Below are positions 17,198 through 21,745 of a stretch of DNA of 33,990 nt, piece by piece (positions within the stretch are counted from its first letter, which is position 1; each line of letters opens with the position of its first letter). Under the pieces are notes generated by a model. It was not told where the DNA came from and searched no databases. It worked only from the letters and a program-made list of their open reading frames with translations. Source of the stretch: Campylobacterales bacterium (GTDB lineage Bacteria; Campylobacterota; Campylobacteria; Campylobacterales; Hydrogenimonadaceae); assembly GCA_027065515.1 (NCBI GenBank), contig JAMOOM010000162.1:1-33990 (forward strand), given 5' to 3'. A program made the position numbers and the translations under genes.

Positions 17198-17239
17198 AGT
17201 ATAACTTTATTTGCTTAAGTTGAGATTGATTTTCGTCAA
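17198..17239 (-). promoter_or_regulatory. FNR-type class II promoter for the nor-nir operon
   Basis: TTGAC-N4-ATCAA (read on the minus strand, 17239-17226) is followed after exactly 22 bases by TATACT (17203-17198). The centre is at -41.5 for a start near 17191, 37 bases before the first gene. No other such box lies between here and 8131 on this strand, so it may drive up to ten genes. Confidence 0.82.
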
Positions 17240-17782: not shown

Positions 17783-17824
17783 ATATTAGCACAGTTTCAA
17801 ATATTTCTTTTTGATTCTCATCAA
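17783..17824 (-). promoter_or_regulatory. FNR-type class II promoter in divergent region
   Basis: A perfect TTGAT-N4-ATCAA box at 17811-17824 is followed, on the minus strand, after 22 bases by TAATAT (17788-17783). That is exact class II spacing for the 17360-17749 gene. On the plus strand a TATACT (17854-17859) lies 29 bases away, a less usual distance, so control of the 61-residue ORF and the Crp/Fnr gene by the same box (including self-regulation) is possible but less supported. Confidence 0.78.
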
Positions 17825-17890: not shown

Positions 17891-18076
17891 TTGAACATTG
17901 TTTTGACATTGGTTTTTAGTATTGTAATGCTTTTTTTTATGGCCTTTCCTGCGATGAAAATCACTGATTGGATCGATGCAAGGTACCCCATTCCAAAAAA
18001 ATTATACACACCTGTAATGCTGACGATAGTGGTAATATTATCTTTAATAATAGGGATCTTTTTAAAATATGCGTAG
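17891..18076 (+). CDS. 61-residue two-span membrane protein upstream of the Crp/Fnr gene
   Basis: A 61-codon ORF beginning TTG at 17891, with AGGGAATG upstream. The protein is two hydrophobic helices (about 3-20 and 40-58) joined by a short loop containing DWIDARYPIPKK. Its end overlaps the start of the Crp/Fnr gene by 8 bases, so the two are probably coupled. I recognise no family. It could be a membrane partner of the regulator or a respiratory accessory protein; neither is shown. Confidence 0.6.
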   Translation: MNIVLTLVFSIVMLFFMAFPAMKITDWIDARYPIPKKLYTPVMLTIVVILSLIIGIFLKYA

Positions 18077-18725
18077 ATCTGAAATTGCGGAAAAACTCAA
18101 AGGATTCTATTTCTTTCGCCATATAGAAGAAGAGAGACTTCAAAGAATAATAGAAATCTCATCTATCGTGGAATACAAGCGAGGAAGCGTCCTTTTCTAC
18201 GAAGGCGAGGAAGCCAAATCGCTCGTAGTGCTTCTTGAGGGAATGCTGCAGATATACAAGACCGATCGAAAGGGAAACAGGATCATACTGCACCATTTCG
18301 TTCCGACGGCCATGATTGCCGAAATCGTGAATCTCGAACACATGAAATACCCTGCGACCGGGGAGTTCGAGAGTGATGGAAAAGCGCTCCTTATCAACTA
18401 CGAAATCTTCGAAAAGGAGTTTTTGAAAGATCCGGAAATCTCTCTCTCTTTCATAAAATCGCTTTCTAAAAAGATCAAATATCTGGAAAATGTCATCGCT
18501 ACCAATATGGTGATGAACTCCACGGCACGCGTAGCGAAATTCATCTGCGAGCACACCAACGAACTGGCACATTTGAAAAAAAGTATGATAGCCGCCGATC
18601 TCAATATGACACCCGAAACCCTTTCGCGGATACTCAAAAAACTAGCCACTCTAGGGCTCATAGAAAAGAGCAGTGATAGTATCAAAATCATCGATAAAGA
18701 GGGTCTTGAGACCTATTATCTCTAA
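18069..18725 (+). CDS. Crp/Fnr family regulator, likely nitrogen-oxide responsive
   Basis: A 218-residue Crp/Fnr protein: cyclic-nucleotide-binding fold (about 15-125), a long dimer helix (about 125-155) and a winged helix. The recognition helix reads PETLSRILKKL; the E-x2-S-R pattern is that of FNR, which reads TTGAT half-sites. The N-terminal cysteine cluster of O2-sensing FNR is absent (the only cysteine is in FICEHTNE), and so are the cAMP-contact residues of CRP. That combination resembles DNR/NnrR regulators, which sense NO through heme. Five boxes it could bind lie in this window. NO sensing is inference; the fold and helix are seen. Confidence 0.88.
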   Translation: MRRSEIAEKLKGFYFFRHIEEERLQRIIEISSIVEYKRGSVLFYEGEEAKSLVVLLEGMLQIYKTDRKGNRIILHHFVPTAMIAEIVNLEHMKYPATGEFESDGKALLINYEIFEKEFLKDPEISLSFIKSLSKKIKYLENVIATNMVMNSTARVAKFICEHTNELAHLKKSMIAADLNMTPETLSRILKKLATLGLIEKSSDSIKIIDKEGLETYYL

Positions 18726-18791: not shown

Positions 18792-18833
18792 TTGACATAA
18801 ATCAAGCTTACTATAAGGGAAAAGTTGTAGAAT
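18792..18833 (+). promoter_or_regulatory. FNR-type class II promoter for napA
   Basis: TTGAC-N4-ATCAA at 18792-18805 is followed after 22 bases by TAGAAT (18828-18833). The predicted start is near 18840, about 98 bases upstream of the napA ATG. The long hairpin at 18844-18908 would therefore form the very 5' end of the nap mRNA. Confidence 0.8.
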
Positions 18834-18843
18834 TAGTTTGTGT

Positions 18844-18908
18844 TGGAATCGTAGTGCCTAGATGTAAGGAATTTTTTATTCTTTGCGTCTGGGTGCTATG
18901 CGGTTCCA
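18844..18908 (+). promoter_or_regulatory. Long near-perfect RNA hairpin at the 5' end of nap mRNA
   Basis: The 65 bases fold into one stem: TGGAA at 18844-18848 with TTCCA at 18904-18908, then 18849-18872 with 18878-18903, leaving a 5-base T loop and one 2-base bulge (18899-18900). About 28 pairs form, of which 7 are G-U. Those G-U pairs break symmetry at the DNA level and favour an RNA of this strand as the functional form. It ends 29 bases before the napA ATG; the AGGAGG ribosome site (18929-18934) is outside it. I match it to no known riboswitch. Confidence 0.7.
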
Positions 18909-18937
18909 GAAATGTGTAAATTTATTAGGAGGTAATT

Positions 18938-21745
18938 ATGTCAACCATCTCACGACGTGACTTCCTCAAGAGTGCAGCGGCCGCAACGGCTGCAAGCGCT
19001 GTTGGGATGTCTGTTCCTACCGAAGTAGAAGCCAAAGCCAATACAGCCGAGGGAGGCTGGCGTTGGGACAAGGCAGTCTGCCGATTCTGCGGAACCGGCT
19101 GCGGCATCATGGTCGCCACTAAAAACGGCAAAATCGTTGCCGTCAAAGGCGACCCTGCGGCTCCGGTGAATCGCGGCCTTAACTGTATCAAAGGATACTT
19201 CAACGCCAAGATCATGTATGGCGCCGACCGTCTGACAACACCTCTGCTTCGCATGAATAACAAAGGCGAATTCGACAAACATGGAAAATTCGCACCTGTC
19301 AGCTGGAAGCGGGCTTTCGATGAAATGGAAACACATATTCGCAGAGCTCTCAAAGAGGGCGGCCCTGAAGCGATAGCGGTATTTGGCTCGGGTCAATATA
19401 CGATTATGGAAGGTTACGCTGCTGCCAAAATGATGAAAGCGGGCTTCCGCTCTAATGCAATCGATCCGAACGCACGACACTGTATGGCATCGGCGGTCGT
19501 TGGATTTTTCCAGACATTCGGTATCGACGAGCCATCTGGATGTTACGACGATATCGAAATTACCGATACGATCGTCACATGGGGCGCCAATATGGCAGAA
19601 ATGCACCCAATTCTCTGGGCACGTGTCACAGACCGCAAACTCTCCGATCCAGAACGCGTCAAAGTCGTCAATATTTCTACATATAGACACCGATGTTCCG
19701 ACTTGGCGGATATTGAGATCATCTTCCGTCCCGGCTCCGATCTTGCGATGTGGAACTATCTTGCACGCGAAATCGTTTACAACCATCCGGAAGTAATCGA
19801 TTGGGATTTTGTCAAGAAACATACAGTATTCGCGACAGGTTTCGTCGAAACAGGATATGGTATGCGCATGCCGGATGAAGCGAGAGCACTCGGATATAGC
19901 GGTAAAGAGCTCGAAACGATTAAAGAAGAGGCAAATCACACTGTATCGGAGCGCGAAGCTGCGGGACTGTCACCGCTGGGGTATAAAGCGGGCGACAATA
20001 TGAAAATGGTCCACCGCGGACATGCCCTGGGACACTGGGGAATCAGCTTCGAAGAGTTCAAAAAAGGGCTCGAACCATATACGCTTGATTATGTCGCGAG
20101 TGTAGCCAAAGGCGATCCGGATGAAAGCATCGAAGTGTTCAAAGGCAAGCTCGAAGCGCTTCGCGACCTCTATATCGACAAAAGCCGCGGCATGGTCAGC
20201 TTCTGGACGATGGGAATGAACCAGCACTATCGTGGATCATGGGTCAACGAACAGTCATATATGGTACACTTCCTGCTCGGAAAGCAGGCAAAACCGGGAC
20301 AGGGAGCCTTCTCGCTCACAGGTCAGCCTTCCGCTTGTGGTACAGCTCGCGAAGTCGGCACATTTACCCACCGTCTGCCAGCCGATATGCTTGTAAAAAT
20401 TCCCAAACACAGAAAGATATCCGAGAAAATCTGGAAACTGCCGTCAGGTACGATCAACCCGGTAGGTACGCAGCATATGGTTAAAATCCATAGACAAATC
20501 GAAGATGGAAAGATCAAGTTCGCATGGGTCAACGTATGTAACGCATTCCAAGATACCGCCAATGCCAACCACTGGATCAAAGCGGCACGCGAAAAAGATG
20601 TCTTCATCGTTACATCCGATGGCTATCCTGGCATCTCGGCAAAAGTTTCCGACCTCGTTCTTCCTTCTGCAATGATCTACGAAAAATGGGGCGCATACGG
20701 AAATGCCGAACGTCGTACACAGCACTGGAGACAGCAGGTTCTTCCAGTAGGGGATGCCATGAGCGATACCTGGCAGTGGATCGAGCTTTCAAAGCGCTTC
20801 ACAGTCAAAGATCTCTGGGGGGAAGCTCCGATCGCCAACGGCAAAAAGAAATTGCCAAATGTCATAGGCAAAGCCAAAGCGATGGGCTACGATGAAAATA
20901 CGACAATGTTCGAAATTCTCTTTGCCAATGACTACTTCAGAAGTTTCAAAGCCGATGATCCGATCGCAGCGGGCTTTGATGATACAGAGACGAATGGTGA
21001 CAGCCGCAACGTTCTTGGAAGTGATGGCAAACCATGGAAAGGATATGGCTTCTTCATCCACAAAGCCTTGTGGGAAGAGTATCGCAAGTTTGGTATCGGA
21101 CATGGCCACGACCTCGCGGATTTCGATACATATCACAGAGTACGTGGACTCAGATGGCCTGTCGTAAACGGAAAAGATACTCCTTGGCGCTACAATGTCA
21201 AATACGATCCGTATGCACGAAAACACGCTAAACCAGGTGAGCAGTTCGCCTTCTATGGACCGGCACTCAAAACGATCAAAAGAGGAAATCTCAAGAGAAT
21301 CGACCCCAAGCTTGGTAAATTGCATCTGCCAAACAGAGCGAAAATCTTCTTCAGACCATACATGGATCCGACAGAGCAGCCGGACAACGAGTATGATGTA
21401 TGGTTGTGTACCGGTCGTGTAATCGAGCACTGGCACTCAGGTACTATGACGATGCGCGTACCAGAACTGTTCCGTGCGATGCCGGAAGCTCTATGCTATA
21501 TGAATCCGGAATATGCAAAATCCAAAGGTCTCAAAGATGGAGATCTGGTCTGGGTAGAGAGTAGGCGTGGCAGAGTCAAAGCACACATCGAAACACGTGG
21601 ACGTAACCGACCTCCAAAGGGCCTTGTGTTTATTCCATGGTTCGACGAACGCGTTTTCATAAACAAAGTATGTCTGGACCACACGTGTCCTATGTCAAAA
21701 CAGACAGACTACAAAAAATGTGCGGTCAAGATCTATAAAGCATAA
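18938..21745 (+). CDS. napA: Periplasmic nitrate reductase catalytic subunit
   Basis: A 935-residue molybdoenzyme reducing nitrate to nitrite in the periplasm. It has a twin-arginine signal (SRRDFLK at 5-11), [4Fe-4S] cysteines C48, C51, C55 and C83, and the Mo ligand C182 ([10 protein letters not shown]). The length (about 100 residues more than E. coli NapA) and extra insertions match the Campylobacterota form. The ATG follows a strong TTAGGAGG site. It leads napAGHBFLD, driven by the FNR-type promoter at 18792-18833, with a long hairpin in the leader. Confidence 0.97.

What the first reader, a model, noticed from the sequence alone, without database searches (positions are those of the whole stretch)
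18844..18908. 28-base-pair hairpin forms the predicted 5' terminus of the nap mRNA
It begins about 4 bases after the predicted transcription start, is almost fully paired with a single 2-base bulge, and includes 7 G-U pairs that only make sense as RNA. Such an element could protect the operon mRNA from 5' decay, bind a protein, or be processed into a small RNA. I know of no described counterpart for napA.
Basis: seen in the sequence. Interest (0 to 1): 0.65.

Follow-up and report, generated by a model that had tools for sequence, protein, structure and literature searches.

The report
Conserved hairpin starting nitrate-reductase mRNA
In the vent bacterium Hydrogenimonas the message for the nitrate-respiration enzyme Nap is predicted to begin with a long RNA hairpin that evolution has kept folded through matched changes on both arms, most likely a built-in guard against decay of the message and a previously undescribed RNA element.

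Summary
Confirmed and strengthened. The hairpin (18844-18908) has 29 pairs, one 2-nt bulge and 8 G-U pairs; RNA MFE is -39.4 kcal/mol, z = -9.4. The window is from a Hydrogenimonas MAG. All 15 Hydrogenimonas napA genes with a readable leader carry it at a fixed register: 44 nt after the centre of an FNR-type box, and 9 nt after the -10 element in the 13 where that was measured. G-U outnumbers A-C 55 to 5, so the sense RNA is selected, not a DNA palindrome. A covariance model finds the element convincingly only at napA in Hydrogenimonas; Rfam has no match. Stem arms are 68-89% identical, against 40-53% for loop, promoter spacer and synonymous sites. Sulfurimonas nap leaders independently start with another conserved hairpin, several other lineages with further unrelated ones. 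Most likely function (inferred): a 5'-terminal barrier to 5'-end-dependent decay, in organisms with RNase J and no RNase E/G hit above cut-off. RNase III processing or binding of a specific protein remain open. The transcription start is predicted, not measured.

The parts
18069..18725 (+). Crp/Fnr-type regulator gene directly upstream of the nap operon
   Evidence: Pfam PF00027 and PF13545 above cut-off
18792..18805 (+). FNR-type box TTGACATAAATCAA, centred about -41.5 from the predicted start
   Evidence: pattern TTGAN6TCAA; present upstream of all 15 Hydrogenimonas napA genes at constant spacing and upstream of most other Campylobacterota napA genes
18828..18833 (+). -10-like element TAGAAT; +1 predicted near 18840
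   Evidence: sequence; -10 end to hairpin 9 nt in the 13 relatives where it was measured; no classical -35 found, as expected for an activator-dependent promoter
18844..18872 (+). 5' arm of the hairpin
   Evidence: fold, covariation
18873..18877 (+). apical loop, free to vary in length and sequence among relatives
   Evidence: fold; 40% identity
18878..18908 (+). 3' arm of the hairpin, with the bulge at 18898-18899; extra unpaired bases on this side at this place are a feature of the genus
   Evidence: fold and alignment
18909..18937 (+). single-stranded part of the leader with the ribosome-binding site AGGAGG (18928-18933); spacing from hairpin to start codon 27-30 nt in all relatives
18938..21745 (+). 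napA, first gene of the nap operon (Tat signal, molybdopterin oxidoreductase); iron-sulfur proteins, NapB and further genes follow
   Evidence: Pfam; ORFs

Best explanation
The sequence is a cis-acting RNA element, a hairpin of about 29 pairs that begins 3-5 nt after the predicted start of the FNR-type-controlled nap transcript in every Hydrogenimonas with a readable nap leader. Most likely it works as a 5'-terminal decay barrier: by leaving only a few unpaired 5' nucleotides it hinders pyrophosphate removal and loading of the 5'-to-3' nuclease RNase J, prolonging the life of the long nap mRNA. Shown: the fold, covariation, strand, register, nap specificity, and presence of RNase J and RNase III with no RNase E/G hit above cut-off. 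Inferred: the transcription start and the stabilising function.
For: Fold z -9.4. Covariation in 15 relatives: 95.3% of cells paired, 9 pairs with two-sided change, 0 of 500 shuffles as high, slid controls at most 4 pairs; 13 independent two-sided events on the napA tree. G-U 55 versus A-C 5. Fixed placement: FNR-box centre to hairpin 44 nt in 15/15. Only at napA. Loop free to vary (40% identity) while arms are 68-89% identical, against 42% at 4-fold sites. Unrelated hairpins at the same place in other lineages point to a function that needs a 5'-terminal hairpin rather than one sequence. RNase J present, no RNase E/G above cut-off. Precedent in the phylum: disrupting the vacA 5' stem-loop of Helicobacter pylori shortens mRNA half-life and restoring pairing restores it (PMC4843948); 5' hairpins stabilise mRNA in Bacillus, where RNase J acts (review PMC3997798). 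The hairpin stays folded at 55-70 C in the model.
Against: A plain barrier does not need the arm sequences to be so conserved, nor conserved wobble pairs (columns 27-50 G-U in 13/15, 14-63 U-G in 11/15), and 29 pairs is more than a barrier needs. A near-perfect stem this long is also a plausible RNase III substrate, and RNase III is present. Many Campylobacterota have nap leaders of 21-37 nt and no hairpin, so the function is dispensable in the phylum. The Sulfurimonas hairpin is weak (about -3 kcal/mol) but sequence-conserved, which fits protein recognition better. No transcript data.
Confidence: 0.45

Rival explanations
1. The hairpin is an RNase III processing site: cleavage of the stem removes the 5' end, generating a processed nap mRNA that is either stabilised or exposed to RNase J, and possibly a short stable RNA.
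For: Length of 29 pairs with few interruptions; RNase III present; Campylobacter jejuni RNase III cuts an intramolecular duplex and a 5' hairpin of pre-CJnc190 (PMC8687705). Conserved stem sequence and wobble pairs would fit a positioned cut.
Against: No RNA data; the 5'-terminal position fixed to the promoter is not needed for RNase III; the hairpins of other lineages at the same place are mostly too short for RNase III.
Confidence: 0.2
2. The hairpin is the binding site of a specific RNA-binding protein (or other trans factor) that adjusts translation or stability of nap mRNA; the stem sequence is conserved because it is read.
For: Arms 68-89% identical while 4-fold sites are 42% and the promoter spacer 53%; 3'-side bulge about 8-9 pairs above the base kept throughout the genus; Sulfurimonas nap leaders carry a sequence-conserved hairpin with GGA in its loop at the same place, and CsrA is encoded in both genera.
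Against: The variable loop leaves only a helix to read; no ANGGA site sits in a loop of the Hydrogenimonas hairpin (sequence); the element occurs at one operon only, so there is no regulon for a dedicated protein; no candidate protein identified.
Confidence: 0.25
3. The palindrome acts in DNA, as a cruciform or an operator downstream of the start site.
For: Inverted repeat next to the promoter; some opposite-strand model hits, which a palindrome gives automatically.
Against: G-U outnumbers A-C mismatches 55 to 5 and the opposite strand folds worse in all 15; hairpin length varies from 65 to 73 nt; compensatory changes.
Confidence: 0.03
4. The hairpin is an attenuator, thermosensor or riboswitch expression platform controlling access to the ribosome-binding site.
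For: It lies in the leader of a regulated operon.
Against: No T-run follows it and no terminator is called there; in folds of the leader alone the ribosome-binding site lies outside the hairpin; it stays folded from 37 to 70 C in the model; no Rfam family.
Confidence: 0.05

Closest known systems
vacA 5' UTR stem-loop of Helicobacter pylori (PMC4843948)
   Same: Stem-loop in the 5' UTR of an mRNA in the same phylum, in a species with RNase J and no RNase E; conserved across strains; loss shortens mRNA half-life
   Different: Different gene and unrelated control; function there tested, here inferred. I did not compare sequence or length with vacA.
5'-terminal stabiliser stem-loops (ompA and papA of Escherichia coli; 5' stabilisers of Bacillus; review PMC3997798)
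   Same: A hairpin within a few nucleotides of the 5' end, ribosome-binding site left outside it
   Different: From general knowledge those are usually shorter; this one has 29 pairs with conserved arm sequence and sits on a nitrate respiration operon
RNase III-processed intramolecular duplex of Campylobacter jejuni CJnc190 (PMC8687705)
   Same: Long intramolecular RNA duplex in a Campylobacterota transcript
   Different: That is a small RNA precursor; no cleavage is known here
Sulfurimonas nap leader hairpin GUUAAUGGACACCUUAAC (seen here)
   Same: Starts at the predicted start of FNR-box nap transcripts (box centre to hairpin 41-43 nt); found at napA in the loci checked
   Different: Unrelated sequence, 5-pair stem, conserved loop

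Membership tests
5'-terminal mRNA stabiliser stem-loop | Hairpin begins within about 5 nt of the transcription start | tested here: inconclusive
   Constant spacing to FNR box and -10 predicts about +5; the start itself is not mapped
5'-terminal mRNA stabiliser stem-loop | Real, selected RNA base pairing | tested here: met
5'-terminal mRNA stabiliser stem-loop | Ribosome-binding site left outside the hairpin | tested here: met
   AGGAGG at 18928-18933 begins 20 nt past the hairpin and is not paired with it in leader folds. When napA codons are included it pairs with coding sequence in some folds.
5'-terminal mRNA stabiliser stem-loop | Disruption shortens mRNA half-life, restored pairing restores it | not testable with these tools
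   Needs rifampicin decay assays
RNase III processing hairpin | Duplex of about two turns or more, and RNase III encoded | tested here: met
   29 pairs, RNase III found
RNase III processing hairpin | Staggered cleavage in the stem | not testable with these tools
   Needs in vitro cleavage or RNA-seq in a strain without RNase III
Known Rfam family (any) | Covariance-model score at the gathering threshold | tested here: not met
   No match for the window, three Hydrogenimonas loci and two other nap leaders; best sub-threshold hits are microRNA-precursor models far below threshold
CsrA-regulated leader | ANGGA in a hairpin loop plus csrA in the genome | tested here: not met
   csrA present, but no ANGGA in a loop of the Hydrogenimonas hairpin; the ribosome-binding site resembles a site but is not in a consistent hairpin loop

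The most novel reading that the evidence does not exclude
Nap mRNAs across Campylobacterota share a previously unrecognised layer of control: a 5'-terminal hairpin anchored at the start site of the FNR-controlled transcript, evolved with unrelated sequences in different genera (29 pairs in Hydrogenimonas, GUUAAUGGACACCUUAAC in Sulfurimonas, GUUAU...AUAAC forms in Sulfurovum-like genomes), recognised by a specific factor that sets the life or translation of nap mRNA.
Probability: 0.25. Interest if true: 0.7.

Novelty: new member of a known kind. Interest (0 to 1): 0.52.

Why it matters
It is a covariation-supported RNA element absent from Rfam, tied to one respiratory operon in every member of a vent genus whose nap leader could be read, and the recurrence of unrelated 5'-terminal hairpins at nap start sites suggests that mRNA lifetime of nitrate reductase is under selection in Campylobacterota, a phylum that appears to rely on RNase J rather than RNase E. 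It gives a direct, testable case for how 5' structure sets mRNA stability there.

Tried and rejected
DNA-level palindrome: rejected by the G-U versus A-C bias. Terminator or attenuator: no T-run, none called. Thermosensor: fold persists at 55-70 C in the model and the ribosome-binding site lies outside it. Known riboswitch or RNA family: none. A second copy elsewhere in the genome or a regulon: the model finds only napA leaders above noise; the opposite-strand hits at the same loci are a by-product of the palindrome, and other hits at E 0.04-0.9 were not pursued. Small upstream ORF in the left arm: read by eye on the leader printouts, no frame or stop kept across relatives. Pairing of the ribosome-binding site with the Tat-signal codons GACUUCCUC of napA: appears in folds that include coding sequence but is inconsistent between relatives and coding-constrained, so not claimed.

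Full report
WHAT IS THERE. The window lies in a contig of a Hydrogenimonas MAG (G000:C162; named relatives). The stretch 18844-18908 folds as RNA into one hairpin: 29 pairs, 5-nt loop, a single 2-nt bulge on the 3' side, MFE -39.4 kcal/mol, z -9.4 against dinucleotide shuffles. The opposite strand gives -11.6. It is the strongest 70-nt fold on either strand of the window. In relative G016 the same hairpin ranks first among hairpins in a 400-kb two-strand sample when scored by pairs minus twice the interruptions.

PLACE. napA starts at 18938; a Crp/Fnr-type gene lies upstream at 18069-18725; iron-sulfur proteins, NapB and further genes follow napA. An FNR-type box TTGACATAAATCAA (18792-18805) and a -10-like TAGAAT (18828-18833) put the start near 18840. 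No classical -35 was found, as expected for an activator-dependent promoter. From FNR-box centre to hairpin the distance is 44 nt in all 15 Hydrogenimonas leaders; from -10 end to hairpin it is 9 nt in the 13 where my pattern found the -10 (in the other two the pattern hit a different site, but the same -10 is visible); from hairpin to start codon 27-30 nt. The hairpin is therefore anchored to the promoter.

COVARIATION. Leaders of 15 Hydrogenimonas napA genes (the window's and 14 others, proteins 88-93% identical to it) were aligned by sequence alone. On the structure taken from the window, 95.3% of cells form standard pairs, 9 pairs carry two-sided changes in 18 cells, and none of 500 shuffles reaches any of the five measures; sliding the partner by 1-3 columns drops pairing to 30-53% and two-sided pairs to at most 4. 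RNAalifold independently predicts nearly the same helix with 9 compensated pairs. A model-based realignment with a 16th copy gives nearly the same result, but that alignment is fitted to the structure. On a napA tree the two-sided changes need 13 events in 9 pairs; several branches of that tree are weakly supported. Non-Watson-Crick cells are G-U 55 times and A-C 5 times, so the sense strand is the selected one; the p-value printed there ignores relatedness.

SPECIFICITY. A covariance model finds the element in 15 of 18 Hydrogenimonas genomes, at every convincing score in a napA leader. Of the three without it, two show no close napA match and one has only the end of napA on a contig edge. In 200 genomes of the order nothing else scores convincingly; three genomes outside the genus give E 0.04-0.09, which I take as noise. 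Rfam has no match.

CONSTRAINT. Mean pairwise identity is 68-89% in the stem arms, 40% in the loop, 53% in the spacer between FNR box and -10, 84% in the FNR box and 42% at 4-fold degenerate sites of napA (the last without L002, for which the codon register was not matched). The arms are thus about as constrained as the activator site, more than I would expect if any stem would do.

OTHER LINEAGES. With the start set at 41.5 nt after the FNR box, 32 of 59 distinct non-Hydrogenimonas leaders are 21-37 nt long, and only one of those has a 5' hairpin. Of 27 leaders of 40 nt or more, 9 have a 5'-terminal hairpin at least as strong as the best 5% of shuffles (about 1.4 expected; leaders are not independent). 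In Sulfurimonas the sequence GUUAAUGGACACCUUAAC, or a variant with up to 2 changes, starts 41-43 nt after the box centre where the box was found. Among the fetched loci with at most 2 mismatches, nearly all are followed by a napA start by my motif; in two (L146, L178) the strict motif did not match, and L146 does show a napA-like start by eye. These hairpins share position, not sequence. The set was chosen by napA similarity, so proportions are not phylum-wide.

MECHANISM. Hydrogenimonas encodes RNase J, RNase III and CsrA, and has no RNase E/G hit above the curated cut-off. In Helicobacter pylori, which by PMC4843948 lacks RNase E and has an RNase J degradosome, disrupting the vacA 5' stem-loop shortened mRNA half-life 1.6-fold and restoring the pairing restored it. 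5' hairpins are long known to protect mRNA in Bacillus (PMC3997798). Hence the preferred explanation: a 5'-terminal decay barrier (0.45). Sequence conservation beyond pairing, conserved wobble pairs and length keep two rivals alive: binding of a specific factor (0.25) and RNase III processing (0.2), the latter with precedent in Campylobacter jejuni (PMC8687705). No published start site for nap in these genera was found in the open-access library.

VERDICT. The element is a new, genus-wide, nap-specific cis RNA of a known general kind. Its function remains inferred.

Noticed in passing
L145-L151, L176, L180, L182, L183, L187, L189-L191, L193, L195-L197: Sulfurimonas nap transcripts are predicted to begin with a conserved small hairpin GUUAAUGGACACCUUAAC (GGA in the loop), 41-43 nt after the FNR-box centre where the box was found; no Rfam match in the one such locus scanned (L148).
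   Followed up: partly
L035 3004-3083: A napA about 80% identical to the window's, in a MAG labelled Deltaproteobacteria, sits behind a multihaem cytochrome gene; its leader keeps the Hydrogenimonas-like tail TATTCCAGAAAGTAATTAAAATCAGGAGG but carries a different strong hairpin (AATAATCCCCC/GGGGGATTATT) and no FNR box. Looks like lateral transfer with the promoter end of the leader replaced, or a binning problem.
   Followed up: partly
L106 leader; L019 and L062 leaders; L082 leader: Other Campylobacterota nap leaders with long hairpins of unrelated sequence at or near the predicted start; L106 and L019 exceed shuffles, L062 does not, and L082 lacks a clean FNR-box match.
   Followed up: partly
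window 17226-17239 and 17811-17824: Two further FNR-type boxes close to the starts of minus-strand genes next to the nor/nir cluster; five such boxes in the window against 1.45 expected.
   Followed up: no
window 18928-18933 with 18978-18990: The napA ribosome-binding site AGGAGG is complementary to Tat-signal codons (within GACTTCCTC) of napA and pairs with them in some folds; probably a coding by-product.
   Followed up: partly
G004:C28 and G004:C90 (L113, L127): One Hydrogenimonas MAG holds two contigs with a nap leader and napA start, each with the hairpin and slightly different; duplicate or strain mixture not resolved.
   Followed up: no
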